Source: Candidatus Methanoperedens sp.
GTDB lineage: Archaea > Halobacteriota > Methanosarcinia > Methanosarcinales > Methanoperedenaceae
Length of the DNA stretch: 64,000 bases
Direction of reading: 5' to 3'
Assembly (NCBI GenBank): GCA_027460525.1
Contig: JAPZAS010000029.1
Location: 1 to 64,000 of the forward strand
In this document: positions 99 through 61,054 of the stretch, piece by piece
Layout: each line of letters opens with the position of its first letter
How positions within the stretch are numbered: position 1 is the first letter of the stretch
Notes under the pieces: generated by a model
The model's database searches: none
What the model saw: only the letters and a program-made list of their open reading frames with translations
Told to the model about the DNA's origin: nothing
Program-made: the position numbers and the translations under genes

Positions 99-1220
99 AT
101 GGAAATTCTTGATACCTCTGCCCATACCAAAGAAGAATCTGTCAGGCTTCTCTCAAAAGAGCTGGGAAAAAACCCTATTTTAATATTGACAGGGCCGCAG
201 GGAGGGGGAAAAACGACCCTGGCTATCCAGATGCTCACGGGGAACGTGGGAGCAATGTTTGAAGGGAGAGCGCGCTCAGCCCAGCCTGTTGTTCTTATAA
301 GAAAAGACTTTGTTGAGAAAATGAAAGGGGAGCTATATGAGAAAAGAAAGCTTCCCATCTTTGAAGAGGATGAGCCCGTATTTGTCGAAGTTTCGGTGTA
401 TGACCAGGTAAAATTGCTGGTCGAGAACATATTCGATGTAATGGAACTGGGAGAGCCTGAATTGATAAGGCAGATTACCCTTCTGACAAAAAAACTTGGC
501 GCGGTTCCGAAAGGGATTGAACTTATAGCCAGCGATGAAGAGCTTGTAAAAAGAAGACTGTCGCGGCACCTCGACGCAAAGGAACGGCTATCATTGCTCC
601 TGGAAAAAGAAAAAAAGTACGGGATAGAATCAAATCTTCTGGGCATTCAGGGAGCGAAGATCACGGATATTATTAACCGAGATGGAGTGGCTGATTATTC
701 GGATGACCAGATTTCAAGAACGATAAAGGATTTTGACAGGATAATCCCGACAAAAGGATTGACCATAAAAGACTGCCTGCAAAAAATGATTGAAATTTCA
801 AATAACGAGAATAAAGAGAGCGGTTTTCTCGTACTTCATACGGACGAACGGGAAAAAATCATAAGCGACCTTGTGGTGGGAAAGCAGACAAATTCTTTAA
901 TCGGCGTGACGCTTCTTGAGATTTACGTGGGCTTCCGGCAGAACAGGGCGTTATATCGCGCTTATAAACATGAAAAAGAAGGAAGGCTTGAGATCATCCA
1001 CTCCTATACCCCCACTCTGCAGGAACTTGAGTTCATGGCAAGTCCCTGGACTATGCCTACAGAATTCCCCATAATGTCCTCTGCGGATGTCGCAGCAGCG
1101 GAGCGGTTCGATGTCATGGTGTCCGTGGTCGAGTCTGATGGGACGGTGGAATCATCGAGTAAAAAGAGGAAGAAAGAACTTGAGGGGATTGTTTCGGGGA
1201 TAGTTGGGGTTGGGGAATAA
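99..1220 (+). CDS. P-loop NTPase of unknown function
   Basis: A 373-residue soluble protein. A Walker A motif, GPQGGGKTT, lies at residues 32-40 after a short N-terminal segment, so the N-terminal half is a nucleotide-binding P-loop domain. The middle is rich in Lys and Glu and probably helical (roughly residues 95-240). No transmembrane segment or signal peptide is visible. The C-terminus ends in a basic KKRKKE stretch and a Gly/Val tail. I recognise no specific family beyond the P-loop class. It stands alone, 146 bases upstream of a secreted protein in the same direction. No clear Shine-Dalgarno sequence precedes the ATG, so translation may be leaderless or the start may differ. Reality of the gene is likely; function is unknown. 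Confidence 0.8.
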   Translation: MEILDTSAHTKEESVRLLSKELGKNPILILTGPQGGGKTTLAIQMLTGNVGAMFEGRARSAQPVVLIRKDFVEKMKGELYEKRKLPIFEEDEPVFVEVSVYDQVKLLVENIFDVMELGEPELIRQITLLTKKLGAVPKGIELIASDEELVKRRLSRHLDAKERLSLLLEKEKKYGIESNLLGIQGAKITDIINRDGVADYSDDQISRTIKDFDRIIPTKGLTIKDCLQKMIEISNNENKESGFLVLHTDEREKIISDLVVGKQTNSLIGVTLLEIYVGFRQNRALYRAYKHEKEGRLEIIHSYTPTLQELEFMASPWTMPTEFPIMSSADVAAAERFDVMVSVVESDGTVESSSKKRKKELEGIVSGIVGVGE

Positions 1221-1366
1221 TACGCGTGGAGCGAGATTGCATAGATAAAGGCTAATTTATACTGATTATTTCGCAAGATTCTTATACTTTCGAGGTTTAA
1301 GCACTCTGGCGGTATAGTTTTCATGCTCAAAAAATGGGCATCAAAGTCCATGGATTGGTGGTAAGA

Positions 1367-3532
1367 ATGTTCGAGAATAAAAAGTGCAGAGGGCGTGCCC
1401 TCGGGATTGCGGTGGGAATAACGGCGCTTGTGTTGCTGATGGTGGGCGGGGTGTCGGCAAGCGCAGGTTGGTTCATCAACGACACTGCAACAGGCGGGGA
1501 CTGCACCTCTATTGGTACATGGAATGCTGCATCGAAGACCTGCACGCTGACAACTGATTTAACCGGAACAATAGAGATAGATAGCGACGGCATAACCCTT
1601 AGCGGCAATGGTCATACGATAACAGGAAGCTCTACAGGGAACGGGATTTATCTTTCAGGAAGAAACGGCGTCACGATAAAGAATACGAATGTCAGGAACT
1701 TTTCCCACGGCATCTATCTGGACTCTTCCAACAACAACACGCTGAACGGCAACAATGCCTCGAACAACACCTACGGCATAACTCTGTACTCTTCCAGCAA
1801 TAACACGCTGAGCGGCAACAATGTCTCGAACAACGCCGCTGGCATCGCTCTGTCCATTTTTAACAGCAACAACACGCTGAGCGGCAACAATGTCTCGAAC
1901 AACTACGACTACGGCATCATTCTGGACCATTCCAGCAACAACACGCTGAGCGGCAACAATGCCAATTCGAACAACTACAACGGCATATATCTGTCCGGTT
2001 CCAACAGCAACATGCTGAGTGGCAACAATGCCAATTCGAACACCTACAACGGCATATATCTGTCCATTTTTAACAGCAACAACACGCTGAGCGGCAACAA
2101 TGCCAATTCGAACACCTACAACGGCATCTATCTGTCCTCATCCAGCAACAACACGCTGAGCGGCAACAAAGCTAACTCTAACAACGACTACGGCATCTAT
2201 CTGCTCTCTTCCAGCAACAACAACATTTATAACAACGCTTTCAACAACACCAACAATTTTGGTCTTGGAACCGTAGAAAGCAACATCTGGAACACCGCCA
2301 AAACCTCCGGCACGAACATAGTCGGCGGCTCCTATCTCGGCGGCAACTTCTGGGCTTATCCGAACGGCACAGGCTATAGCAAGACCTGCACTGATAACAA
2401 TGGCGATGGGATATGCGACTCAACATACACGCTTGATGGAAGCAATATCGATTATCTGCCACTTGCATACAAGTTCACTTCAACGTCCACCGCCAACGTC
2501 AGCATCTTAGATTTCTCTTTCCAGCCGCAAACCATAAATGTAGCCGCAGGAACTACAGTCACCTGGACTCATCTGGGCTCGGCAACTCATACAGTCACCA
2601 GCGATACCGGACTATTCGATTCAAGCTTTCTTTCTCATGGTCAGACGTTTTCCCGAACCTTCAATGATGCTGGAAATTATGATTATCATTGCAGCATTCA
2701 TCTTTCCATGACAGGAAGAGTAGCCGTTTCCTCTCCGGCTGTCACACCAACCCCCACTCCAACTCCTACGCCAACCCCTGCTCCAACACCTACACCCGTG
2801 CCATTACTGGTATCCTCCATAACCCCGAACAGCAGGAATGCGCAGGTAGGCACGCCAGTCACGATATTCATGTCAGTGATTAATGGCGGAACAGCCAGCG
2901 CGACAGGCGTGAGGGTAGCACAGGCATCCGGTTTGCCTGTAACTGTAACCTACCAGCAGTGGAACGGCACTGCGTTCACAGGTTCGCCGAACACACCTGT
3001 GGACATGCCTGCAGGCGTCTTAGCTAACTTTGTGCTGACCATTAATGCAACACAAGCTTTCAGCACTTCATCGCTGACATTCAATGTATCTGGCACCAAT
3101 GCAGCAGCAGCTCCTATAAGTGGAGTTAACACTCTGACCATCTCAGCAAGTACAGTGCCCAGTGCGGATGTTATCATGATGTCCACGTCATTAGCTGTAA
3201 GTACAGCAGTTAATACACCTGCTGTGTTTGCAGTAGCGACAGCAAACGTTGGGGGAGCCAATGCAACCGGGGTAAGCTTGGTCTTGAGCGTGCCGGCTTC
3301 GATAAGCGGATTATCTTATCAGATAAATGAAACCTATCCTGCGAACGGTACTATCAAAGGTCCGGCAACAGGATTGACCATTAACGTGGGCGCTACTCCG
3401 ACCTTTGCAGTGTTCCTGACACCAACAGCAGCAATAGCCAACGACCCTGCAAACAACAGGATTACGCTTCAACTGGTAGATGGCAGCGGCAAAATAATAG
3501 GAGCACAGTCAGTGGCTGTATCGACTACATAG
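1367..3532 (+). CDS. Secreted beta-helix protein with cupredoxin domain
   Basis: A surface protein. I chose the ATG at 1367, which follows GGTGG and opens directly into a signal peptide (basic MFENKKCRGR, a hydrophobic stretch, then SASAG). The open frame itself begins at 1334, and the numbers below count from there. Residues about 80-330 are imperfect Asn-rich repeats of the pattern NNTLSGNN..GIYLS, typical of NosD/parallel beta-helix (PbH1) proteins. Residues about 387-465 form a plastocyanin-like cupredoxin with a full type-1 copper ligand set: His419, Cys453, His456 and Met459. A Pro-Thr linker follows, then about 250 residues of beta-rich, CARDB-like domains. No C-terminal membrane anchor is evident. 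The copper site suggests extracellular electron transfer or copper binding; this is inference, and the partner is unknown. Confidence 0.9.
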   Translation: MFENKKCRGRALGIAVGITALVLLMVGGVSASAGWFINDTATGGDCTSIGTWNAASKTCTLTTDLTGTIEIDSDGITLSGNGHTITGSSTGNGIYLSGRNGVTIKNTNVRNFSHGIYLDSSNNNTLNGNNASNNTYGITLYSSSNNTLSGNNVSNNAAGIALSIFNSNNTLSGNNVSNNYDYGIILDHSSNNTLSGNNANSNNYNGIYLSGSNSNMLSGNNANSNTYNGIYLSIFNSNNTLSGNNANSNTYNGIYLSSSSNNTLSGNKANSNNDYGIYLLSSSNNNIYNNAFNNTNNFGLGTVESNIWNTAKTSGTNIVGGSYLGGNFWAYPNGTGYSKTCTDNNGDGICDSTYTLDGSNIDYLPLAYKFTSTSTANVSILDFSFQPQTINVAAGTTVTWTHLGSATHTVTSDTGLFDSSFLSHGQTFSRTFNDAGNYDYHCSIHLSMTGRVAVSSPAVTPTPTPTPTPTPAPTPTPVPLLVSSITPNSRNAQVGTPVTIFMSVINGGTASATGVRVAQASGLPVTVTYQQWNGTAFTGSPNTPVDMPAGVLANFVLTINATQAFSTSSLTFNVSGTNAAAAPISGVNTLTISASTVPSADVIMMSTSLAVSTAVNTPAVFAVATANVGGANATGVSLVLSVPASISGLSYQINETYPANGTIKGPATGLTINVGATPTFAVFLTPTAAIANDPANNRITLQLVDGSGKIIGAQSVAVSTT

Positions 3533-3563
3533 GAAAAACACTTCGTTCCTCTCGAATTTCAGT

Positions 3564-3651
3564 GCATCTGGAAAGGAACAAGAGTCAAAGAAAGCAGTCC
3601 CAGAATGAAAGCAAGAATCCCCAGAGCCATCCTGCCTTTTCCAAGCGGCAC
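3564..3651 (-). repeat. Duplicated 3' end of the site-2 protease gene (far copy)
   Basis: These 88 bases match 9824-9911 with three substitutions and no gap. The copy there is the 3' end of the intact M50 protease gene. This one still carries a TGA stop (3560-3562) in the corresponding frame, but it is fused out of frame to an S-layer remnant. Beyond 3651 the similarity fades, with one codon missing relative to the intact gene. Both copies have the same orientation and bracket the 3.65-9.82 kb island. Confidence 0.9.
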
Positions 3652-4190
3652 GTTGTTAAGGGGTTTCTATTTCTGCAGCAGGTGTAGAGTTTAACCCCAT
3701 CTTTGCTAAGAGAGAACCATACCTGTCTTGGGGAAGCTTTGGCATCAATGGAGTTGGCTGTCAATGTCCATCCATCTCCAACATCCCCGGATTTGCGCAC
3801 AGCCAGTATTTTCTTATCAGATGACGCATTGCCCTGCTCGATCACAATCCTTGAAAATTTCTTTGCATTGCCTTTGACTGCAACATATGGCCGGCCCATC
3901 CAGCCCACGACGTCATATTCTCCGGACCCGTCGTATGGAAGGAGTGATCCACCGAATGCTATGAGTATCTCAGTAGAAGTATGTCCGTTTTCCACTACTT
4001 TTAAGGTCATGCTTGCTTTGGTAGTATCCGTACCACAATTGATTTTCCTGTATAATCCCTGCCGATCAGGGTTGCTATATTCAGCGTCTAGGTCTTCAAT
4101 CAGATTTAATGTCATACCAGAATCCAGGGAAATTTGAGGCATTCCATGTCATGGGGTCCGTGGCGGCTCTCCAGGAACATTCGCGGTAGT
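3600..4190 (-). pseudogene. Decayed S-layer (Methanosarcina-type) domain
   Basis: An open frame from 4142 down to 3585 reads like the repeated domain of Methanosarcinales S-layer proteins (PF07752): stretches such as SGMTLNLIEDLDAEY and RQVWFSLSKDGVKLYTC fit that family. The domain's usual opening is also present, but in another frame: just upstream the sequence encodes TWNASNFPGFWYDIKSD and then hits a stop. A frameshift therefore splits the domain near 4095-4120. At its C-terminus the frame runs out of register into the duplicated protease 3' end, so it is truncated there too. There is no signal peptide and no second S-layer domain. It is a gene fragment, not a working S-layer protein. Confidence 0.75.
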
Positions 4191-4220
4191 GATTGGATTA
4201 ACAAAAACTTAATTAAGCGA

Positions 4221-4230
4221 TACTTATATC
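4221..4230 (+). promoter_or_regulatory. TATA box of the ABC transporter operon
   Basis: The sequence tacttatatc lies 13-22 bases before the ATG at 4243. At normal archaeal spacing, transcription would begin at or just after the start codon region, implying a leaderless or nearly leaderless mRNA. No Shine-Dalgarno sequence is seen before this ATG, which agrees. Confidence 0.5.
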
Positions 4231-4242
4231 TAACTGGATTAG

Positions 4243-5154
4243 ATGATTGTATTAAATAATCTTACAAAAACTTTCACGAGAAAATCCTTTCTGGGAAAGA
4301 AGGAAAAAATTGTTGCAGTTGACCACTTAAACCTGAATATAAATAAGGGAGAAATTTTTGGTCTTATAGGACCAAATGGTGCAGGTAAAACCACAACCAT
4401 AAAAATACTTTCAACACTCATTCTACCCGATGAAGGCACTGTGACTGTTAATGGCTATAATGTTAAAAAAGATGCGGAAAAAGTTAGAGAAAATATTGGT
4501 GTTCTTGCAGGCGAATTTACAAGGGCTCTATATTGGCGTTTGTCGGGGAGACAAAATCTAGAATTTTTTGCGAATCTGAGGAATATGCGGAATATAGATA
4601 AGAGAATTGATGAACTTTTAGAGATGTTCGACCTGAAAGATTATGAAAATGATCTCATTATGAAATATTCCACAGGAATGAAGCATAAGCTTGCCCTTGC
4701 AGTCGCATTATTAAATGATCCCCCAATACTATTCCTAGATGAACCACTGAGCGGCATCGACCCTGTGACAACGTTTCAATTAAAAAACATGATAAAAAAC
4801 AAATTCAGGGATAAAACAGTTATCTGGACATCACATAACTTGTATGAGATTGAGGAAATGTGTCATAGAATAGCGTTGATAAATAAAGGGAAGATTGTTT
4901 TGGAGGGACAGCCAGAAGAATTGAAAAAAAAAATATGGGAGTATGAAAAGATTGCCGTGCGGTCAAATAATGCAAGTGCATTCTCCTCATTAGGAGAAAT
5001 AGAGGGAGATCTTGTCATGATAAAAACAAAGAATATCACAGCCACATTTTTAAATATTATGGAGGTTGCAAAAAATAATAACATTAAGATCAATGAGATA
5101 AAAACCCTGAAACCAAGTCTTGAGGAAATATTCATGGCTGGTTTAAAAAAATGA
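4243..5154 (+). CDS. ABC transporter ATP-binding protein
   Basis: A 303-residue ATPase of the ABC-2 (drug, antibiotic or polysaccharide export) type. Walker A is GPNGAGKTT at residues 43-51. The signature region (YSTGMKHKLALAVALL) is near residue 141, and Walker B with the catalytic Glu (ILFLDEPLSGID) follows at about 160. The switch His is in WTSHNLYEIEEM. It carries the C-terminal extension usual for this subfamily. It overlaps the permease gene by four bases, so the two are translationally coupled and form one exporter. It points towards, and converges with, the radical SAM/peptide operon. Export of the modified peptide is an attractive but unproven role; self-immunity is another. Confidence 0.93.
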   Translation: MIVLNNLTKTFTRKSFLGKKEKIVAVDHLNLNINKGEIFGLIGPNGAGKTTTIKILSTLILPDEGTVTVNGYNVKKDAEKVRENIGVLAGEFTRALYWRLSGRQNLEFFANLRNMRNIDKRIDELLEMFDLKDYENDLIMKYSTGMKHKLALAVALLNDPPILFLDEPLSGIDPVTTFQLKNMIKNKFRDKTVIWTSHNLYEIEEMCHRIALINKGKIVLEGQPEELKKKIWEYEKIAVRSNNASAFSSLGEIEGDLVMIKTKNITATFLNIMEVAKNNNIKINEIKTLKPSLEEIFMAGLKK

Positions 5155-5966
5155 CAGATAAAATAAGGACCATAAGCACGTTCATAAAACGAGACTTCAT
5201 GATTTTGTCTACCTATGGATTGGCAATCACCAGCATGGTTCTTTCAACTATTTTTAACCTTTTTTATCTTGCACTTTTCGGTAGCATGTTTAAAGAAAAC
5301 AATCCCTCAGGTATAGCCATGTACGGTGGGGGTTTTATTTCATATATGCTTGTAGGCTCAATTGGTTGGAGTTTCCTATGGAGTATAGTAAATGCCACAT
5401 CCAGCGCACTGAGCGACGAGATGAAAATGGGAACACTGGAATCTATAATGCAGACGAAGACTAGTATAACTACTCTTATTATTGCATATACACTATCAGG
5501 TTGCATTTTTGGTGCTATTTCCACAGGAATCATTTTCGCAGCAGGTTATTTCTTTTTTGGAATTGTAGCTTATAGTGATGCAAACATTTATACTCTCGTC
5601 ATATTTTTCCTGTCAATACTTCTTATGATAGGTTTTGGAATGATATTTGGCGGGTTGACACTTTGGATGAAAGATATAGGTCAAACAGTCCCATTAATTC
5701 AAACCATTGTGATGTTTTTTAGTGGTGTATATTTCCCTATAACCGTTTTGCCAGAATTCTTTCAACCTGTAGCAAAATATATTCCATTTTATTATTCTAT
5801 TGAAGGATTAAGAATATCACTCGTGCCAACTATACAGGCTATAGAAATCATGAAATATATATGGATACTGTCTGGATTATCAATATTATTTTTCTTCGTA
5901 GGTCTTTATATTTTACATAAGGGACTAAATAAGGCAAAGAAGGATGGGAGTTTGGCATTCTACTGA
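5151..5966 (+). CDS. ABC-2 type transporter permease
   Basis: A 271-residue integral membrane protein with about six hydrophobic segments. Examples are the runs around residues 20-45, 60-85, 107-135, 140-165, 175-195 and 235-260. Its layout matches ABC-2 permeases: a cytoplasmic N-terminus, and a GGLTLWMKD segment before the penultimate membrane helices. It overlaps the upstream ATPase gene by four bases. It ends 18 bases from the convergent TraB-family gene. Codon use is AT-rich, like the rest of the island and unlike the mevalonate operon beyond 9.8 kb. The substrate cannot be read from the sequence. Confidence 0.9.
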   Translation: MTDKIRTISTFIKRDFMILSTYGLAITSMVLSTIFNLFYLALFGSMFKENNPSGIAMYGGGFISYMLVGSIGWSFLWSIVNATSSALSDEMKMGTLESIMQTKTSITTLIIAYTLSGCIFGAISTGIIFAAGYFFFGIVAYSDANIYTLVIFFLSILLMIGFGMIFGGLTLWMKDIGQTVPLIQTIVMFFSGVYFPITVLPEFFQPVAKYIPFYYSIEGLRISLVPTIQAIEIMKYIWILSGLSILFFFVGLYILHKGLNKAKKDGSLAFY

Positions 5967-5984
5967 AAAAATTTAGTTGTGAGT

Positions 5985-6701
5985 TCAGTAGTGGCATATA
6001 TTTCTTAGATTATCCAGTTTAATGATCTCTAGATCAAAATCCATTAATGCTTTGCAAATTCCTTCAACATGGGCGTTGCCTATAATCACTGCCATGTTGC
6101 TATTCTCCTTATAAATTCCTCTAATTTTTTCTGCCATATACAGATTTCTCTCATCTATTAAAATTTGTTTGAGGACAGGATAATTTCTAGCAAATATTTC
6201 TTCGTATCCTTCTTTTTCACATTCCTTCCTTTTCTTTTCGACCCCTGCTCTATCCAGCAATGATCCTCGCAAACATCCCAAAAAAAGGTTTATTCTCTCT
6301 TTAAGTGACATTCTCTTTCCTATAAGTTCTGCAACAGCAGACCTATCCATGTCTATCGGAAAAATTTTTGCACCGATTTCCGTTGCAACACGAATTGCTG
6401 TTTTAAATTCTTCACCAATATTAAAATATCTTGTTTTTTTTGCACTGGTTATTTGGTAGGCAGCAAGACTTGTTTCAATTCTTAAACCTCTTCTTAAATA
6501 TATGTTTTCTTTCATTTTTTTACGAAAGTAATAACGTTCCTCTTCTTTGGAGGTTTTACCTAGTAAAGTATTATACCCTAACTCATCCAGTTCCACGCAT
6601 ACAGTGGAGGGCATTCTTTCCACGATTACTTGTCTTAATTTTTCATTTAAATCTTCAACATGCCGGACGCATACAACGGTAATCATAACAACTTTTTTCA
6701 C
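5985..6701 (-). CDS. TraB/PrgY-family protein (putative peptide-processing or immunity protein)
   Basis: A 238-residue protein resembling the TraB/PrgY/Tiki superfamily. The N-terminus has VRHVEDLNEKL, then a segment rich in Val ending VCVELDELGYN, which corresponds to the family's conserved His and the E-L-D region. A second His-containing motif, GNAHVEGI, is near residue 220, and a central IGAKIFPIDMDR also fits the family. The usual GTAH opening is altered. Family members include PrgY/TraB, which shut down self-made peptide pheromones, and Tiki-like metalloproteases. It is the last gene of the operon: its ATG overlaps the stop of the upstream radical SAM gene by four bases. That position suggests leader removal, peptide turnover or immunity. 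No membrane segment is evident. The role is inference. Confidence 0.75.
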   Translation of the reverse strand: MKKVVMITVVCVRHVEDLNEKLRQVIVERMPSTVCVELDELGYNTLLGKTSKEEERYYFRKKMKENIYLRRGLRIETSLAAYQITSAKKTRYFNIGEEFKTAIRVATEIGAKIFPIDMDRSAVAELIGKRMSLKERINLFLGCLRGSLLDRAGVEKKRKECEKEGYEEIFARNYPVLKQILIDERNLYMAEKIRGIYKENSNMAVIIGNAHVEGICKALMDFDLEIIKLDNLRNICHY

Positions 6702-8023
6702 TTGAACGGATTTTTATATGCCTCAGGTAGTTTTTCCCATTGAATGGCCCATGGGCAGTTATCCATATTTTTCGATTTTACAAACGCTGCTGCATGACAG
6801 GCTGTACAAATATGAAAATTTTGACATTCACCACACATTTCTTTATTAGGACACTTTAATTGATAGAAAAAATCAATAAGAGGAGACATGTATATTTGCT
6901 TTAGATCCGTTTTAAAGATATTACCTATTGAATACTCAAAAGCAAGGCATATCTTTACATTTCCGTAAACATCTATTGCTATCATATTATATCCTGCACC
7001 ACAGTTCTTCCTTTCGTCAGACAAAGTCACTTCAGTTTCAAAACTCTCGAACCAGGGCTTTACATAGAAATTTTCGTCTGTATACTTTTTACTTAACTCA
7101 ATCAACATTGCATTTGCTTTATTCTTCTGCTCTTTTGTTAATTCAAGGTTTTTACCTTCGGCTCTTCCTGCCGAAATCGTCATACCCACTTTAAGTCTTC
7201 TTACACCACTTTTTTTAGCAACCTTTATTACATCTTCAATTTCCATAAGATTCTTAGGATTTAATGTCATTGTGAAGCTGACGGGTATATGTGGGGAAAG
7301 AAGTTTTGCAGATTTTACCGCTCTCTCCCATGATCCTTTTACCCCTCTTATGGAGTCATGTGTTTCAAGTTTTCCATCTAAACTTATACTTGCAGTAAAT
7401 TTACAGCATCCACTTTTGGAAATATCCACTATTTCGCTTGTTAACTTGCTGTCTATATTATATCCGTTCGTTGATATGTCAACAACCAAGAACTTTTGAG
7501 AGCAGAATTTCAAGATTTTAAGAAAGTCTTTGCGAACAAAGGGATCACCTCCAGTGAGCACAATCTTTCTCGTACCATTATCATAAACAGAATTTAGAAT
7601 TTTTAATATTTCCACAGTGGAAAGGACTTCCTCCAGATTTTTTCCGGCATTTACATAACAATGTTTGCACATTAAATCACATCTTTGCGTAAGTGTCAAA
7701 GAAACATCCACAGGCACAAAATATTCTCTGCTACCTAATATGGTTCCATGACTCTCTGGAGATATATTATGAAAAACCACATGTCCTTTTTTTTCGCTTT
7801 CTCGCAAAAATTTAGCTACAAGACCATAAACCTTAGAAAGATGATCATCATGCCTCTGGGCAAGTATCTTAGAAATTTCGTCAATATTATGTTTTCCATC
7901 ACATAATTCTAATATTTCTGCACCAATGGGGTTAAGATAACAATGAGGTGTATCCAATTTCCAGATTATACTCTCCTTAGGAGAAAGGTTTAGGGTGGTA
8001 TCTTCACTTAGTGTGGGGTACAT
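6698..8023 (-). CDS. PqqD-radical SAM-SPASM peptide maturase (second enzyme)
   Basis: A 441-residue enzyme. I chose the ATG at 8023 because GGAAAG sits 8-13 bases upstream; a longer start at 8041 is possible. Residues 1-90 resemble a PqqD-like RiPP recognition element (NPIGAEILELCDGKHNIDEI). The radical SAM cluster motif is C115-x3-C119-x2-C122, with a GGDPF segment after it. The C-terminus is a Cys-rich SPASM/twitch domain starting at CGAGYN and including CPNKEMCGECQNFHICTAC, for auxiliary iron-sulfur clusters. Enzymes of this layout install thioether or C-C crosslinks in peptides (AlbA, PqqE and relatives). It overlaps the upstream paralogue and the downstream TraB gene, so all three are coupled. 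It is a homologue, not a copy, of the first enzyme; the two may act on different residues. Confidence 0.92.
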   Translation of the reverse strand: MYPTLSEDTTLNLSPKESIIWKLDTPHCYLNPIGAEILELCDGKHNIDEISKILAQRHDDHLSKVYGLVAKFLRESEKKGHVVFHNISPESHGTILGSREYFVPVDVSLTLTQRCDLMCKHCYVNAGKNLEEVLSTVEILKILNSVYDNGTRKIVLTGGDPFVRKDFLKILKFCSQKFLVVDISTNGYNIDSKLTSEIVDISKSGCCKFTASISLDGKLETHDSIRGVKGSWERAVKSAKLLSPHIPVSFTMTLNPKNLMEIEDVIKVAKKSGVRRLKVGMTISAGRAEGKNLELTKEQKNKANAMLIELSKKYTDENFYVKPWFESFETEVTLSDERKNCGAGYNMIAIDVYGNVKICLAFEYSIGNIFKTDLKQIYMSPLIDFFYQLKCPNKEMCGECQNFHICTACHAAAFVKSKNMDNCPWAIQWEKLPEAYKNPFK

Positions 8024-9372
8024 ATTAACTGCTCTTTCCATTTACAATGTGTTGCATTGTTACTGTAAATATCTGCATGAGCATGGCATCCAAAACAAAG
8101 ATATATACGCCCGCAGTCACTGCACATCTCAGAATTGGGCGCCTTAAGGTCTTTGCAAAATTGTGTATGAATAGATTTCAAAATCTCCTCTACACTTTGT
8201 TTTGAAACATCACCTATAGTATAATCCCATAAGTTACATGATTTGATAACTCCTATAGAATTTATGAACATGGATCTGTATCCTGCACCACAATTTCCTC
8301 CAATTATTTTTAACAATTCGTTTTGTTTCATTAGTATTTCTTCTTTAATGGATTTTTCTTCATTATCTCCAGAAGGTAATGGTAGTTCGATCTTGAGATT
8401 ATCTTTTGTTCGTACATTAAAATTCTTATGTGAGTACTTTTGAGAGAATTTTTCTATATCCCTTCCTATAGACATCATCTCATCAACAGTTAAAGAAAGG
8501 TCATGTTTAGTTGCTCTACCGAGAGAAATAACTCTTCCTACTGCAAAGACATTTGCACCAAGTTTATCAGCAAGTTTTATTGTATCTTCTATTTTATCTT
8601 TATTTAACCTGAAAGCCATCATGCCTACATGAGTTAAAATTCCTACTTCAGATAATAGCCTTATAGCATTTGTGGCTTTTTCAAAAGAACCTTTTTTTCC
8701 TCTAATATAGTCATGGGTTTCTTTGTCGGGACCGTCCAAGCTTACTTGAATCATTTCGAGGTTTTTATATCGAGACAGCTTCTCCACAATATCTTTATTT
8801 ACTCTATAGCCTGATGTTAAAAGTCTTACTTTAAATTTATCCTCACAAAAATCTAGAATTTGAAAAATGTGTGGATAAGCAAGCGGGTCTCCTCCTGTTA
8901 TACTTATCAGCCTTGTACCAGCCCTATGAAATCCATCTAAAACTTTTATCCATTTTTCGAATGATACTTCATTTCTCTTTCGAGCTCCCGCTTCAGCATA
9001 GCAATGAATGCAACTTAAATCGCACTGGGAAGTAATCTCTACTGTGATAGCGATTGGTGCCCAAAAATTTTTATTACCTCCAATAATAGGTTTTTCAAAC
9101 ATTTCTCCGTTAGTAAATAGGATATTTCCTCTTTCTTCACTTTTTTTCGAAAAGTTAATAACTAAGTCTCTTACTCGTTCAATACTATCATTATATTTTT
9201 TAGCGAGCATTCCACAAATCTCATCCAGAGAATGTCTTCCATCACATAGTGATAATATATCCGCAGCGGGACGATTTAAAGTCTGGAGCGGAACAGGGCC
9301 GGTGTAAAGCGTACCCCCTTCCGGCGTTATGTGAAGCATCATTTCCTTTGCGAGTATTGGGTATTTGTTCAT
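8008..9372 (-). CDS. PqqD-radical SAM-SPASM peptide maturase (first enzyme)
   Basis: A 454-residue enzyme. The ATG at 9372 is preceded by AGAGGA and aligns with the paralogue; the frame opens earlier at 9432, but that extension is a Phe/Ile-rich run with no ribosome binding site. Residues 1-90 form a PqqD-like domain (LNRPAADILSLCDGRHSLDEI), which in RiPP enzymes binds the leader peptide. The cluster motif is C117-x3-C121-x2-C124, followed by SITGGDPLAY. The SPASM region begins CGAGYRS and ends with the CSDCGRIYLCFGC block and a final Cys. It lies 52 bases downstream of the 39-residue Cys-rich peptide gene and is most simply its modifying enzyme. The nearest functional analogues by layout are sactipeptide maturases; the exact bond made cannot be predicted. 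Confidence 0.92.
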   Translation of the reverse strand: MNKYPILAKEMMLHITPEGGTLYTGPVPLQTLNRPAADILSLCDGRHSLDEICGMLAKKYNDSIERVRDLVINFSKKSEERGNILFTNGEMFEKPIIGGNKNFWAPIAITVEITSQCDLSCIHCYAEAGARKRNEVSFEKWIKVLDGFHRAGTRLISITGGDPLAYPHIFQILDFCEDKFKVRLLTSGYRVNKDIVEKLSRYKNLEMIQVSLDGPDKETHDYIRGKKGSFEKATNAIRLLSEVGILTHVGMMAFRLNKDKIEDTIKLADKLGANVFAVGRVISLGRATKHDLSLTVDEMMSIGRDIEKFSQKYSHKNFNVRTKDNLKIELPLPSGDNEEKSIKEEILMKQNELLKIIGGNCGAGYRSMFINSIGVIKSCNLWDYTIGDVSKQSVEEILKSIHTQFCKDLKAPNSEMCSDCGRIYLCFGCHAHADIYSNNATHCKWKEQLICTPH

Positions 9373-9394
9373 CGTAGTATTCCTCTTATTTATG

Positions 9395-9424
9395 ATAAAA
9401 AAATAAAAAATAAAATTTATTAAT
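9395..9424 (-). terminator. T-rich spacer after the precursor gene (partial terminator)
   Basis: Between the peptide stop codon and the first radical SAM gene, the transcribed strand carries runs of T interrupted by single A residues (about 25 bases). Archaeal termination favours such U-rich tracts. Partial termination here would give more precursor than enzyme mRNA. This is inference from sequence only. Confidence 0.4.
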
Positions 9425-9544
9425 TTAGACAATACACGTTACTTGTGGTAATGGTAGACATAAGATTTTCCATTGCCATGCTTTGCATGGAACTACACAT
9501 GGTACACTAATACTATCATTTACGTATTCTGGTTCTTCCATCAT
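9425..9544 (-). CDS. Putative RiPP precursor peptide, 39 residues, four Cys
   Basis: A small gene of 40 codons including the stop (TAA, 9425-9427). The ATG at 9542-9544 is followed by a second ATG. A very strong Shine-Dalgarno sequence, GGGAGGTGAG, sits four bases upstream (9549-9558), much better than those of most genes here. The N-terminal 15 residues are acidic and hydroxylated (MMEEPEYVNDSISVP), as expected for a leader. The rest is a hydrophobic core with Cys16, Cys20, Cys29 and Cys37, Pro15, Pro19, Pro31 and Pro33, and Trp23 and Trp25; it starts CVVPCKAWQWKILC. There is no signal peptide. It is the first gene of the operon, before two PqqD-radical SAM-SPASM enzymes and a TraB-family protein. 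That context makes it the likely substrate. I recognise no known precursor family. Confidence 0.8.
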   Translation of the reverse strand: MMEEPEYVNDSISVPCVVPCKAWQWKILCLPLPQVTCIV

Positions 9545-9663
9545 TATTCTCACCTCCCTTTTGTTTATTGACTACTTGGCCACCTATCGATTAATTCATC
9601 GACTGCAAGTCATGAATCCACCCGTTTTTATCCCTACGGATAATGTAATGGTGGATCATGTTC

Positions 9664-9678
9664 GTATAAATGTTTCGA
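9664..9678 (-). promoter_or_regulatory. Promoter of the peptide-radical SAM operon
   Basis: On the minus strand the sequence tcgaaacatttatac has a purine-rich BRE-like stretch followed by the TATA box TTTATAC (plus 9664-9670). Transcription would start near 9640, giving a leader of about 95 bases before the peptide ATG. The leader contains a small hairpin (9587-9591 with 9598-9602). A long leader with a strong ribosome binding site contrasts with the near-leaderless genes nearby. Confidence 0.5.
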
Positions 9679-9818
9679 TTTAATTCGAGACTCCGTAATT
9701 TAATTTTGTGATTAAACTCTTATTTATGGGGATGGAACCAAGGATATCAATATGCATGGATTACCGTGTTGTTAATTCAAATAAAATTCGAAGAATTATT
9801 GCTGATTTTGTAGGGAAT

Positions 9819-10901
9819 TCATTGCATCTGGAAAGGAACAAGAGTCAAAGAAAGCAGTCCCAGAATAAAGGCAAGAATCCCCAGAGCCATCCTGCCTTTT
9901 CCGAGCGGCACTTCGTCATTAAGTGGTTTTGGATGCCCTGCGGCAGCGAAAAATGACAGGAAAAGTCCCCATAATACCCATAAAAATCCATCGCTTTTCT
10001 GGAAATAAGTCACGTAAAATCCAAGTGAAATAAGTAAAAACGGCATAACTGTTGAGACATGCCTGGCTTTCTCACCCAGCATTGCGCGAAGCACATGCCC
10101 ACCGTCCAACTGCCCGGCAGGCATGAGGTTCAAGGCTGTCACAAACATCCCGACCCAGCCTGCAAATGCGATCGGATACGAAATCAACGCAGTATTCAAC
10201 GGGATAAAACGAGTTATAAATTCAAACAAGAGTGGACGGGATAATTGAATCTGAAAAAACTCTGAGGTTTGGGTAACAGGAGGTTGAAAAAGTCCTACGA
10301 TAGTCACAACGATTGAAACAAAAAGCCCGATCAGAGGACCTGAAACACCTACGTCAAACAGGGCTTTGCGGCTGGGTATCGGTCCGCGGTGTTTGATCAC
10401 TGCCCCCATTGTTCCAATCCCCAAAGGGAACGGGATAAAGTAAGGCAACGAAGTGCGCATGCCATGTTTTTTTGCAATCAGGTAGTGCCCAGCCTCATGA
10501 GACCCCAGCACTGCCATGATTGCAATGGTGAACGGGATACCCTTTAAGATGCCGGATGGGTTGCCTATCGGGTCAGCACCAAAAAGAAATGAACCCATCA
10601 CCATCGTAGTAATAACAGTAGCGATTGCCAGAGCCACGTTTATCCATCGCCTCTCGCGGGCTGGAGTAAAAGGCGAGGCTATGAGCATGTGCTCACCAAG
10701 CTCGTACTTAACAGATAACTGATAATTCTTTTCCGTAAAAACAGGCCATAATTTTTGATAGATTATCCTGATATCTTCCTTAGGGATCCCAAAGAAAAAG
10801 ATATTACCATTCTCGTGCTGGATATCGTAAATAGAAAAAAACTGGTTGATTTTTTCCGCCAGTTCTTCGTCTACCCCGGACTTATTATGGAGATTGTTCA
10901 T
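9819..10901 (-). CDS. Site-2 protease-type membrane metallopeptidase (M50)
   Basis: A membrane zinc peptidase of about 360 residues. The zinc-binding HEAGH is in a LGSHEAGHYLIAKKHG context, and the third ligand is in NLMPAGQLDGGH; both are diagnostic of family M50. Six or so hydrophobic segments surround them. The N-terminal 80 residues are soluble. I used the ATG at 10901; a TTG two codons earlier is also possible and neither has a clear ribosome binding site. Such proteases cut transmembrane substrates in the lipid bilayer. It follows the DUF35 gene closely, so it looks like the last gene of the mevalonate-entry operon. Its 3' end is duplicated at 3564-3651. Confidence 0.92.
   Translation of the reverse strand: MNNLHNKSGVDEELAEKINQFFSIYDIQHENGNIFFFGIPKEDIRIIYQKLWPVFTEKNYQLSVKYELGEHMLIASPFTPARERRWINVALAIATVITTMVMGSFLFGADPIGNPSGILKGIPFTIAIMAVLGSHEAGHYLIAKKHGMRTSLPYFIPFPLGIGTMGAVIKHRGPIPSRKALFDVGVSGPLIGLFVSIVVTIVGLFQPPVTQTSEFFQIQLSRPLLFEFITRFIPLNTALISYPIAFAGWVGMFVTALNLMPAGQLDGGHVLRAMLGEKARHVSTVMPFLLISLGFYVTYFQKSDGFLWVLWGLFLSFFAAAGHPKPLNDEVPLGKGRMALGILAFILGLLSLTLVPFQMQ
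9824..9911 (-). repeat. 3' end of the site-2 protease gene (intact copy of direct repeat)
   Basis: This is the last part of the intact M50 gene. It matches 3564-3651 at 85 of 88 positions, in the same orientation, and forms the right-hand border of the 6.2 kb AT-rich island. The arrangement of intact gene, insert, then an orphan copy of its 3' end is what integration into a gene's 3' end leaves behind. Confidence 0.9.
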
Positions 10902-10915
10902 TTGCAATATACTAC

Positions 10916-58422: not shown

Positions 58423-59609
58423 TTAACACCTTTTGTTGTCGTATTTTGATTGGATTGTACATATATCGCCTCTGTCTTTTCAGCAATTTTCTCCCAAGAA
58501 TAATTCTTAACTTTCATTTTCCCATTTAGTCCCAATTTTTTTTTCATATCTTCATTCTCTAACAAGTAAATTATAGCATTAGCTAATGCCTCTGTGTTTT
58601 TTGGTTGAACCAATAAACCATTTTCTCCGTCCTTAACAATATCTGGTATTCCACCAATATTTGATGCTACAATCGGAACACCACATGCCATTGCCTCTAA
58701 ATTTACAATGCCAAAACTTTCGGTATTCATTGTTGAAGGGAGTATAAACACATCCGCTGCCTTATAATATAATGGCTTCAAACCATCTTCGACAAATCCC
58801 ACAAATCTAACATTTTTTTCAACCCTTATTTTTTTTGATAGGATCTCAAGTTCATCATGCATCACACCTTTTCCAGCAAATACCAACTCAACATCGGACA
58901 CATTTTTTATGATCTTTGGCATCGCCTTTAAAAGCACTTCTGGACCTTTATATGGAGATAGATAACCAAAGAATAACAATATTTTTTTATTAAGAGGAAG
59001 ACACAATTTCTTTCTGCAATCTTCTTTCGAATAAGAAATATTAAAATCCCTATAATTTATCCCGTTTGGGATCACAACGATTTTTTCCCTGTACTTTCTC
59101 AAGAACTTCGATTCATTAATATAATATTCTGAAGGAGAAATGATAGCATCCGCATAGCTTAAAACCTTATCAACCAGATATTTATTATGAAAGGCTACAC
59201 CTACTCTGCGAATAAGTCCACCATAACTTTCCACCCAATCGCCATGATATGTAACTATGAATGGATTTTTATTTTTCTTTGCATATCTTAAACCTGCTAA
59301 AGGTCCTGGTGGAATATCAAAATGTGTATGAATGATATCCACATTATGATCCATAGGTTTTTTGAACATTCCGAATGAGATATTAGAGGTATGTATCCTG
59401 AAATTTGTACCATAACGATAAATTGTCACGTTTTCATTTTTGTCGATTGAATCATCAGAATTAATTGAAGTAGTGAACACATTGACTTCATGACCTCGCT
59501 TGGCCATCTCAGCAGATAGATAATATGCTGCCAGAGAAGAACCACCGTATACATAGTCCTTATGCTGTTGGCTGTATGGAAACTTTGTGACAAAATAGCC
59601 AATCTTCAT
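58419..59609 (-). CDS. Family-4 glycosyltransferase
   Basis: A 396-residue GT-B enzyme. It has a Gly-rich N-terminus with YVYGGSSLAAYYLSAEMAKR, and the donor half shows LLFFGYLSPYKGPEVLLKA and the EX7E motif in SFGIVNLEAMACGVPIVAS. It overlaps both neighbouring genes by four bases. The linkage made is unknown. Confidence 0.93.
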   Translation of the reverse strand: MKIGYFVTKFPYSQQHKDYVYGGSSLAAYYLSAEMAKRGHEVNVFTTSINSDDSIDKNENVTIYRYGTNFRIHTSNISFGMFKKPMDHNVDIIHTHFDIPPGPLAGLRYAKKNKNPFIVTYHGDWVESYGGLIRRVGVAFHNKYLVDKVLSYADAIISPSEYYINESKFLRKYREKIVVIPNGINYRDFNISYSKEDCRKKLCLPLNKKILLFFGYLSPYKGPEVLLKAMPKIIKNVSDVELVFAGKGVMHDELEILSKKIRVEKNVRFVGFVEDGLKPLYYKAADVFILPSTMNTESFGIVNLEAMACGVPIVASNIGGIPDIVKDGENGLLVQPKNTEALANAIIYLLENEDMKKKLGLNGKMKVKNYSWEKIAEKTEAIYVQSNQNTTTKGVK

Positions 59610-61054
59610 TTTTTTCTTCCCATATATTTGAAAAAAAATTTTGCCGACTTAATCATCCCATTCAATTCATGCAATCCGTTCTTTCGCAACACATTACCCA
59701 TCGCTATCGGTATATATGAAGTGGTTAAATAATATTCCTTCAGCCCTCGATCCACATAATTTTCTATATCTTCCTTCGTAAAATCAGGATACGATACAAT
59801 ACATTTCTGGAATCCATCCTTATCAAGAGATTCCTCTAGATCATCAACCAATAAAAAATTATTCTCTTTAACCCAATTATAGAACTCTGTTCCCGGCATC
59901 GGTGTTGCTATCGAAAATTGAGCGATATTTGGTTTAATTTCTTTAACAAATTTTATAGTCTTGTCTGCAGTTTCTTTTGTCTCCCCTTGCATGCCAAAGA
60001 TAAAATCTGCCAGAATCATTAGCCCAGCCTTTTTAGCATCTTTTGTAAATTTTCTGCTATCATCGGTTGTAATTCCTTTCTTTATATTTCGTAGTATCTC
60101 GTCGCTTCCGGATTCATATCCCACATCCAATAGCCTACAACCAGTTTCTTTCATTATTTTCATGGAATCGTAATCGAGGTTTGCCTTTGAATTGCACGAC
60201 CATGCGATATCAAGTTTCCTTCGTTTAATTTCGCCGCAAATTTCTTTTATCCGTTTTTTACTTATTGTAAATGTATCATCCTCGAAGAATATCTCTTTCA
60301 CTTCGTGGACTTCTTTACTAATATATTCAATCTCATCCACCACATTCTCAACACTTCTAACTCTATGTTTTCTGCCCATTAAGGTCTCTGGCCATGAACA
60401 GAACGTGCATTGATTTGGGCATCCCCTCCCTGTAAATATCTGAACCATTGGATAAAGTGTATGACCTAAGAAATAGTCTTTTATATTAAGATGCTCTATG
60501 TATATTTTTGAAACAAAAGGAATTTCTTCGAGTTCTTCAGATATGCTAAAGTTTCTATTTAAATTGTGTATAATCTTGTTATTCGACTTATATGAAATTC
60601 CTTTGACAAGCTCTAAACTACTTCCTTTTTCTAATATTTCAGCAATATCCCTGATGGTGTAATCATATTCAAATCTTGCTGCAATATCCACACCCGCGTC
60701 TAATATTCGTTCTTGAAACTGAGAAACTGGGGGACCGACCAACACTGAAATTGATTCAACCTCGGAGGTTATTGTTTTTGTGACTTCTATATCATTACTA
60801 AGGCTTTGAAAATTACTGTCCGCCACTACTAAATCTGGTTTAAATTTTTTAACATCTTCTTTCACATTTTCTAAGTTCCATCCCCAAGCAGGTGCATCCA
60901 CAAGACGGACTTTATGACCTTCTTTTTCAAGAACCCCGGTAGCATAGGATAACCAGATAGGATAATATAAAGCACCGCCTCTGCATCTTGCAGCCCATCT
61001 CGAATTTCTGCTATAACGTGGAACAAATGGGGGATTTAACATATATATTTTCAT
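59606..61054 (-). CDS. B12-binding-domain radical SAM enzyme
   Basis: A 482-residue enzyme. The N-terminal 150 residues look like a cobalamin-binding domain (MLNPPFVPRYSRNSRW, then VRLVDAPAWGWN). The radical SAM motif is CPNQCTFCSW near residue 215, followed by EIFFEDDTFTISKKR. The C-terminal part (KFVKEIKPNIAQFSIATPMPG) fits this class. Such enzymes methylate unreactive carbons or rearrange rings. In a polysaccharide cluster it may C-methylate a sugar or lipid carrier. It overlaps the glycosyltransferase gene by four bases. Confidence 0.92.
   Translation of the reverse strand: MKIYMLNPPFVPRYSRNSRWAARCRGGALYYPIWLSYATGVLEKEGHKVRLVDAPAWGWNLENVKEDVKKFKPDLVVADSNFQSLSNDIEVTKTITSEVESISVLVGPPVSQFQERILDAGVDIAARFEYDYTIRDIAEILEKGSSLELVKGISYKSNNKIIHNLNRNFSISEELEEIPFVSKIYIEHLNIKDYFLGHTLYPMVQIFTGRGCPNQCTFCSWPETLMGRKHRVRSVENVVDEIEYISKEVHEVKEIFFEDDTFTISKKRIKEICGEIKRRKLDIAWSCNSKANLDYDSMKIMKETGCRLLDVGYESGSDEILRNIKKGITTDDSRKFTKDAKKAGLMILADFIFGMQGETKETADKTIKFVKEIKPNIAQFSIATPMPGTEFYNWVKENNFLLVDDLEESLDKDGFQKCIVSYPDFTKEDIENYVDRGLKEYYLTTSYIPIAMGNVLRKNGLHELNGMIKSAKFFFKYMGRKK

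What the first reader, a model, noticed from the sequence alone, without database searches (positions are those of the whole stretch)
5985..9678. A candidate undescribed archaeal RiPP cluster: Cys-rich peptide, two PqqD-radical SAM-SPASM enzymes and a TraB-family protein
Seen: a promoter, a 39-codon Cys-rich gene with a GGGAGGTGAG ribosome binding site, two overlapping maturase genes each with an N-terminal PqqD-like domain and C-terminal SPASM, and a TraB-family gene coupled to them, all on the minus strand. Known: PqqD domains bind leader peptides, and SPASM radical SAM enzymes crosslink peptide Cys or other residues (AlbA, PqqE). Two different enzymes for one precursor, plus a TraB-like protein, is not a layout I can match to a named class.
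Basis: partly seen in the sequence, partly recalled or inferred. Interest (0 to 1): 0.9.

Follow-up and report, generated by a model that had tools for sequence, protein, structure and literature searches.

The report
Archaeal subtilosin-like modified-peptide gene cluster
A horizontally acquired gene cluster in an archaeon encodes a tiny cysteine-rich peptide, two peptide cross-linking enzymes of the kind that make the bacterial antibiotics subtilosin and sporulation killing factor, a probable peptidase and an exporter; it matters because no such peptide from archaea appears to have been characterised.

Summary
On the minus strand lie a 39-codon, four-Cys gene with a strong RBS (9544-9425), two RRE(PqqD)-radical SAM-SPASM maturases (9372-8008 and 8023-6698, overlapping) and a TraB-family gene (6701-5985, 4-nt overlap). 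The RiPP reading is well supported; "undescribed class" is too strong. Both enzymes fall in the AlbA/SkfB sactipeptide-maturase clade, and not in haem or cofactor families.

The decisive evidence is comparative. The closest maturase relative in the phylum (G310 = MAG Yes46-13) directly follows a 41-aa Cys-rich peptide with the same RBS and the same start, MxExPEY. An RBS+leader pattern hits only these two genomes among 393. More distant relatives (Thermoplasmatota, Bacillota) also have short Cys-rich peptides upstream; one starts MEEPIY beside the window's MEEPEY. Such peptides precede 6 of 9 family maturases versus 1 of 250 control genes.

TraB occupies the position held by a protease in related clusters, so it is probably the leader peptidase (inferred). 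What is unusual is two divergent maturases for one precursor, plus TraB. I rate it a new variant of a known kind.

The parts
9425..9544 (-). Precursor peptide gene, 39 aa, MMEEPEYVNDSISVPCVVPCKAWQWKILCLPLPQVTCIV; short leader (about 14 residues, MEEPEY motif), then a core with 4 Cys
   Evidence: leader shared with G310 and G571 precursors
9549..9558 (-). Ribosome binding site GGGAGGTGAG of the precursor gene
   Evidence: same AAAGGAGGTGA-type site in the G310 precursor
9665..9677 (-). Possible archaeal BRE/TATA element CGAAACATTTATA (untested)
   Evidence: read from sequence
8008..9372 (-). Maturase 1 (P0002, 454 aa): N-terminal PqqD-like RRE, radical SAM (CDLSCIHC at 117), full 7-Cys SPASM
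6698..8023 (-). Maturase 2 (P0003, 441 aa): RRE, radical SAM (CDLMCKHC at 115), full 7-Cys SPASM; overlaps maturase 1 by 16 nt
5985..6701 (-). TraB/PrgY/GumN (TIKI-fold family) protein, 238 aa, no C-terminal membrane domain; His14, Glu37, Glu98, Glu184, His211 kept; probable peptidase
4243..5154 (+). ABC transporter ATPase of the cognate exporter, convergent with the biosynthetic operon
   Evidence: 37-39% to the ABC of the G571 and G640 clusters
5151..5966 (+). ABC-2 permease of the cognate exporter
9818..9916 (.). Right copy of a 99-nt direct repeat: the 3' end of the M50 peptidase gene (9819-10907)
3558..3656 (.). Left copy of the direct repeat, 94% identical, 6260 bp away
1221..9817 (.). 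Segment absent from sister genomes, where the M50 3' end adjoins window position about 1220 directly; the 4243-9544 part is 34-35% GC against 45-50% for its neighbours

Best explanation
A horizontally acquired RiPP cluster of the AlbA/SkfB (sactipeptide-like) kind. The 39-residue precursor is translated from a gene with a strong ribosome binding site. Its short MEEPEY leader is held by the PqqD-type RRE domains of the two maturases (inferred from RRE biology). The radical SAM centres, with the SPASM auxiliary clusters, join the four Cys thiols to other residues of the core, most likely as thioethers, each costing 2 H (inferred; bond type not shown). The two divergent maturases probably each make part of the cross-links on the same peptide (inferred from one precursor and two enzymes). 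The TraB/TIKI-family protein, translationally coupled to the second maturase, probably removes the leader (inferred from position). The convergent ABC ATPase-permease pair exports the product and/or protects the producer. The product is most likely an antagonistic or signalling peptide. Shown here: the genes, domains, conserved peptide position and leader, family clade, exporter kinship, and island insertion. Inferred: chemistry, division of labour, leader removal, function.
For: Domains over cut-offs. Best NCBIfam and PDB-sequence hits of both enzymes are AlbA and SkfB; the G310 relative matches AlbA over its full length, 220 bits. The predicted N-terminus is strands followed by three helices, as in an RRE, and the best fold matches are SkfB, SuiB, TigE and CteB among radical SAM peptide maturases (low-confidence model). 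In the tree, AlbA/SkfB-type enzymes including both window enzymes split from other archaeal PqqD-SPASM enzymes with 100/98 support. The G310 maturase, found by protein search, follows MAEIPEYGVTGTECAACLACVACAGTPTPDLEFFLVSLISL with the same RBS; the RBS+leader pattern hits only the window and G310 in 393 phylum genomes, 0 in the control, and among 36 hits in GTDB only the G310 record has a maturase. Further precursors upstream of maturases in G571 (MPMEEPIYEDTATPGC...), G518, G925, G903 and an Anaerococcus plasmid; 6/9 family versus 1/250 control genes, Fisher p 1.5e-9. Protease next to the maturase: S8 in G571 and G640, CPBP in skf. ABC homologues beside the maturases.
Against: No product or bond is shown. 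Scores for AlbA/SkfB are far below the equivalog cut-offs (152.7 versus 850). No relative was found with both maturases, and TraB is in none of the other clusters, so the roles of the second enzyme and of TraB rest on this one locus. The only precursors with the strict MxExPEY leader are those of the window and G310. The G640 maturase has no precursor upstream (short contig arm). The core Cys pattern of the window (Cx3Cx8Cx7C) differs from the CxxCxxC type of G310, G925 and Anaerococcus.
Confidence: 0.82

Rival explanations
1. TraB is not the leader peptidase but a self-protection or shut-down protein that destroys mature peptide re-entering the producer, as proposed for PrgY/TraB of Enterococcus pheromone plasmids; the leader is removed by a host protease or not at all.
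For: PrgY/TraB are thought to degrade endogenous peptide pheromone (PMC7117660). P0004 keeps the invariant His/Glu residues. Leaders of some RiPPs are removed by proteases encoded outside the cluster (PMC10885120).
Against: P0004 lacks the C-terminal membrane domain of the pheromone-type proteins, it is coupled to the maturase operon rather than to the exporter, and related clusters have a protease in that slot.
Confidence: 0.3
2. The enzymes make carbon-carbon or non-alpha thioether (ranthipeptide-type) cross-links, or the two make different bond types, so the product is not a sactipeptide.
For: Sequence kinship at 25-35% does not fix the regiochemistry; SuiB (a side-chain carbon-carbon cross-linker) is the second-best fold match; the core holds WQW and K residues.
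Against: AlbA and SkfB are the best matches by profile and by sequence, and precursors of relatives are dominated by Cys.
Confidence: 0.3
3. The peptide is modified into a small redox cofactor or carrier (PQQ- or mycofactocin-like) rather than an exported peptide.
For: PqqE and mycofactocin enzymes share the fold, and the host lineage is rich in redox chemistry (inference).
Against: Mycofactocin and PqqE profiles are far below cut-off; a drug/peptide-type ABC pair belongs to the cluster in relatives; the cluster is absent from sister genomes, unlike a core cofactor pathway.
Confidence: 0.07
4. The small ORF is a chance reading frame and the two radical SAM enzymes act on something else.
For: Short ORFs are common (1125 start-stop pairs of this size in the window), and no profile matches the peptide.
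Against: RBS, Cys content, position and shared leader with relatives; 1 of 250 control genes has such a peptide upstream.
Confidence: 0.03

Closest known systems
Sporulation killing factor cluster (skfA-skfB-protease-ABC ATPase-permease), e.g. Anoxybacillus pDSM15939_1
   Same: Precursor directly upstream of an RRE-rSAM maturase, then a protease gene, then ABC ATPase and permease; SkfB is the best solved-structure relative of both window enzymes.
   Different: SkfB is a single maturase with a Twitch domain, one auxiliary cluster (PMC6231123); the window has two maturases with complete SPASM motifs, a TraB-type instead of a CPBP-type protein, a much shorter leader, and a convergent ABC pair.
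Subtilosin A / AlbA system (NF012164)
   Same: AlbA is the top profile for P0002 and for the G310 relative; full SPASM; short-leader Cys-rich precursors in the clade (G310, G925, Anaerococcus).
   Different: 152.7 and 133.8 bits against a cut-off of 850; window core has no CxxC spacing; two maturases.
Thuricin CD (TrnC and TrnD)
   Same: Two dissimilar rSAM maturases in one cluster (PMC8172795).
   Different: Thuricin CD has two precursors; here only one small Cys-rich ORF was found.
Archaeal RiPP clusters of the 2025 survey (PMC12144867)
   Same: rSAM-modified RiPP clusters (ranthipeptides, sactipeptides) were predicted across archaea.
   Different: Only lanthipeptides were characterised there; the passages read do not describe this layout, and supplementary data could not be read.

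Membership tests
Sactipeptide maturase (AlbA/SkfB type) | N-terminal RRE (PqqD-like) domain | tested here: met
   PF05402 E 1.3e-7 and 9.2e-8, over cut-off; predicted strands then helices at residues 4-80, pLDDT mostly 77-88 apart from about 60 in residues 11-30
Sactipeptide maturase (AlbA/SkfB type) | Radical SAM CX3CX2C motif | tested here: met
   CDLSCIHC, CDLMCKHC
Sactipeptide maturase (AlbA/SkfB type) | SPASM Cys set CX9-15GX4C...CX2CX5CX3C...C | tested here: met
   CX12GX4C, CX2CX5CX2C and a last Cys in both enzymes; the last pair is CX2C rather than the published CX3C
Sactipeptide maturase (AlbA/SkfB type) | Score over the NCBIfam AlbA or SkfB equivalog cut-off | tested here: not met
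   152.7/850 and 129.7/300 (P0002), 133.8/850 and 147/300 (P0003): relatives, not members of these equivalogs
Sactipeptide maturase (AlbA/SkfB type) | Clusters with AlbA/SkfB-type enzymes apart from other PqqD-SPASM enzymes | tested here: met
   100/98 branch in a 14-sequence tree; order within the clade unresolved
Sactipeptide | S-C-alpha thioether bonds in the product | not testable with these tools
   needs mass spectrometry and NMR
RiPP cluster in general | Precursor gene next to the modifying enzyme, conserved in relatives | tested here: met
   6/9 family loci versus 1/250 controls; shared MxExPEY leader
RiPP cluster in general | Dedicated exporter | tested here: met
   ABC pair homologous to those in the G571 and G640 clusters
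Thuricin CD-like | Two maturases with two precursors | tested here: not met
   One precursor only in the intergenic regions
TraB/PrgY/TIKI family | Profile match over cut-off | tested here: met
   PF01963 38.2 bits versus 26.8
TraB/PrgY/TIKI family | Conserved His/Glu catalytic set | tested here: met
   His14, Glu37, Glu98, Glu184 and His211 invariant in 19-20 homologues; correspondence to the 2His/2Glu set of a solved enzyme not aligned
TraB/PrgY/TIKI family | Peptidase activity | not testable with these tools
   needs assay
SynChlorMet, haem (AhbC/AhbD/NirJ), mycofactocin, PqqE | Score over the NCBIfam cut-off | tested here: not met
   all at least two-fold below cut-off

The most novel reading that the evidence does not exclude
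The two divergent AlbA/SkfB-type maturases act in turn on one short-leader archaeal peptide and install two different sets of cross-links, and the TraB/TIKI-family protein is a new type of RiPP leader peptidase; this would be the first characterised archaeal sactipeptide-like product.
Probability: 0.3. Interest if true: 0.75.

Novelty: new variant of a known kind. Interest (0 to 1): 0.55.

Why it matters
Predicted radical-SAM peptides are common in archaea, but in the papers read only lanthipeptides have been made and shown. This is a compact, complete, apparently transferred cluster with a recognisable leader (MEEPxY) linking Halobacteriota and Thermoplasmatota, so it can be expressed and tested directly. 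It would tell whether archaea use sactipeptide-type chemistry, how two maturases share one substrate, and whether TraB/TIKI proteins, widespread and mostly without known substrate, process modified peptides.

Tried and rejected
The search for related loci with P0002 in GTDB genomes and IMG/VR, and with P0009 in IMG/VR, found no close relative: not phage-borne as far as held. Alignment search of IMG/VR gave only distant radical SAM enzymes, not pursued. Searching the order (186 genomes) with P0002 gave no orthologue; the best genus hits are an eCIS-linked enzyme of another clade. Thirty-five of the 36 GTDB hits of the leader pattern, and all 8 IMG/VR hits, lack a maturase nearby and are chance or ordinary genes. 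TraB relatives in the phylum are not beside maturases, so TraB gives no independent link to RiPPs. A tree test could not tell whether P0002 and P0003 are sister copies (p-AU 0.139). The peptides have no useful solved-structure match; the lactoferricin hit (E 0.009) is judged chance. The first structure job failed. The claim that the promoter is real could not be tested. Literature searches for TraB with RiPP leader removal found nothing relevant.
Full report
What is there. On the minus strand the window holds a 39-codon gene (9544-9425), two radical SAM genes (9372-8008 and 8023-6698) and a TraB-family gene (6701-5985). The maturase genes overlap by 16 nt, and the TraB GTG start overlaps the second maturase stop by 4 nt. 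Both enzymes pass Pfam cut-offs for PqqD, Radical_SAM and SPASM and carry CX3CX2C and a full seven-Cys SPASM set.

Is the peptide real? In the window only one other place combines a ribosome binding site with a 25-60 codon frame of at least four Cys. The stronger test is comparative. The order of the host (186 genomes) has no orthologue of the maturases. In 393 genomes of the phylum the best relative of P0003 outside the window, by far (E 2.2e-61), is in G310. About ninety bases upstream of that gene ends a 41-codon frame, MAEIPEYGVTGTECAACLACVACAGTPTPDLEFFLVSLISL, with AAAGGAGGTGA before it. The window has MMEEPEYVNDSISVPC... after AAAGGGAGGTGA. A pattern made of the RBS and MxExPEY hits exactly two genomes of 393, the window and G310, with none for the reversed control. 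The pattern was written after seeing both peptides, so what it tests is how rare the motif is elsewhere. In 84,980 GTDB genomes it hits 36 places (the window's own genome left out); only one has a maturase, and that is again G310, record JASEFB010000002.1, archaeon isolate Yes46-13.

A wider circle. The G310 enzyme found further relatives in Thermoplasmatota (G518, G571, G640), in a Bacillota-type phylum (G903, G925) and on an Anaerococcus plasmid. Upstream of the maturase lie MPMEEPIYEDTATPGCGEGLLFFCGLDEQYFCSGLLFNFWCSVPQRPFVLAVE (G571), MEIPAPEYEAPSRGCSALCANMCLPGKIGFMATGPFNMIELS (G518), METPKMNAAPICVGCMACGECIICGPTPSGTECAAVAVGLSAFYN (G925), MNTPAYKGKKIAGCVGCAVVGLNPGLVSFPCIPWYVAAAV (G903) and MKPEIVAMGNGCKLCAGCTGCMFCGPSPAAGVGVAGFVGFF (Anaerococcus). 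With fixed rules, 6 of 9 family maturases have an RBS-led Cys-rich small frame within 400 nt upstream; 1 of 250 other genes in the same and control loci has one (Fisher p 1.5e-9). G640 has none and its contig is disturbed there. The G518 peptide fails the rule for want of a recognised RBS, and the skfA gene (189 bp) is longer than the rule's limit.

Which enzymes? AlbA and SkfB are the top NCBIfam profiles and SkfB the top solved structure by sequence for both enzymes, all well below equivalog cut-offs. The G310 enzyme matches AlbA along its full length at 220 bits. A low-confidence model of P0002 (pLDDT 59) has an RRE-like N-terminus; the best fold matches include SkfB, SuiB, TigE and CteB. 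In a tree the window enzymes, G310, the Thermoplasmatota and Bacillota enzymes and SkfB form one side of a 100/98 branch, apart from other archaeal PqqD-SPASM enzymes. Within that side P0002 leans to the G310/AlbA-like group (84/92) and P0003 is unresolved; sisterhood of the two is neither shown nor rejected (p-AU 0.139).

The rest of the cluster. P0005 and P0006 have their best relatives in the clusters of G571 and G640 (ATPase 37-39%, E about 1e-73; permease 28-31%, E about 1e-25), so the exporter belongs to the system. In G571 and G640 the gene after the maturase is an S8 subtilase-family protein; in an skf cluster it is a CPBP endopeptidase; in G903 two TldD/PmbA-type genes follow. In the window that slot is TraB. 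P0004 keeps His14, Glu37, Glu98, Glu184 and His211, invariant in 19-20 homologues, but lacks the membrane domain; its model (pLDDT 78) matches only TraB-family chains, at modest TM-score. TraB/PrgY proteins are held to degrade peptide pheromones (PMC7117660), and a TIKI-family enzyme has been shown to be an endopeptidase with a 2His/2Glu site (PMC6254334). Leader peptidase is therefore the best guess, by position, not by test; a 2023 review of RiPP leader proteases does not mention TraB or TIKI (PMC10885120).

How it got there. The cluster is 34-35% GC against 45-50% for its native neighbours. A 99-nt direct repeat, the 3' end of the M50 peptidase gene, flanks it at 94% identity. In sister genomes the M50 gene end adjoins the gene at window 99-1220 directly, within about 10-30 bp in four of them, with about 720 bp in a fifth. 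The segment 1221-9817, including a NosD-cupredoxin gene and an S-layer fragment of native-like GC, is thus extra here, perhaps from more than one event. No recombinase was seen in it.

Mechanism. Shown: genes, domains, coupling, conserved peptide position and leader, clade, exporter kinship, insertion. Inferred from AlbA/SkfB: the RRE holds the leader; radical SAM chemistry joins Cys thiols to core residues with loss of 2 H per bond. Inferred from anatomy: two enzymes share one substrate; TraB removes the leader; the ABC pair exports or protects.

Known or new. rSAM-type archaeal RiPP clusters have been predicted in numbers (PMC12144867), with only lanthipeptides characterised in that paper. 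Two maturases occur in thuricin CD with two precursors (PMC8172795). So this is a new variant of a known kind, not a new class.

Noticed in passing
L037 5403-6698, L038 8224-9543, L039 257-1612, L040 7874-9382 (genus relatives G060, G046, G044, G052): A different PqqD-rSAM-SPASM enzyme sits beside eCIS_core (DUF4157) proteins and contractile-injection baseplate genes; possible peptide modification linked to an archaeal contractile injection system.
   Followed up: partly
window 9425-9544: The precursor core CKAWQWKILCLPLPQVTC resembles bovine lactoferricin CRRWQWRMKKLGAPSITC (phmmer E 0.009); probably chance or convergence on an antimicrobial-like WQW pattern.
   Followed up: no
window 3558-4142: A 99-nt copy of the M50 gene end is joined to a truncated S-layer gene piece; with the NosD-cupredoxin gene (1334-3532) it fills a site that is empty in sister genomes, so the site looks like an insertion hot spot (G055 has about 720 bp of other DNA there).
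   Followed up: partly
window 39743-63909: Long AT-rich region (about 30-35% GC) of glycosyltransferase-, sugar-nucleotide-, methyltransferase- and flippase-like genes (read from sequence), with another radical SAM gene at 59606-61054; looks like a surface polysaccharide island.
   Followed up: no
L070 9990-16629: The G310 cluster is followed by several ABC transporter genes, including a fused ABC exporter, in a row.
   Followed up: no
L162 8209-9900: In G640 an N-terminal fragment of the cluster's own ABC ATPase is fused in frame upstream of the maturase, where the precursor would be expected; duplication or assembly fault.
   Followed up: partly
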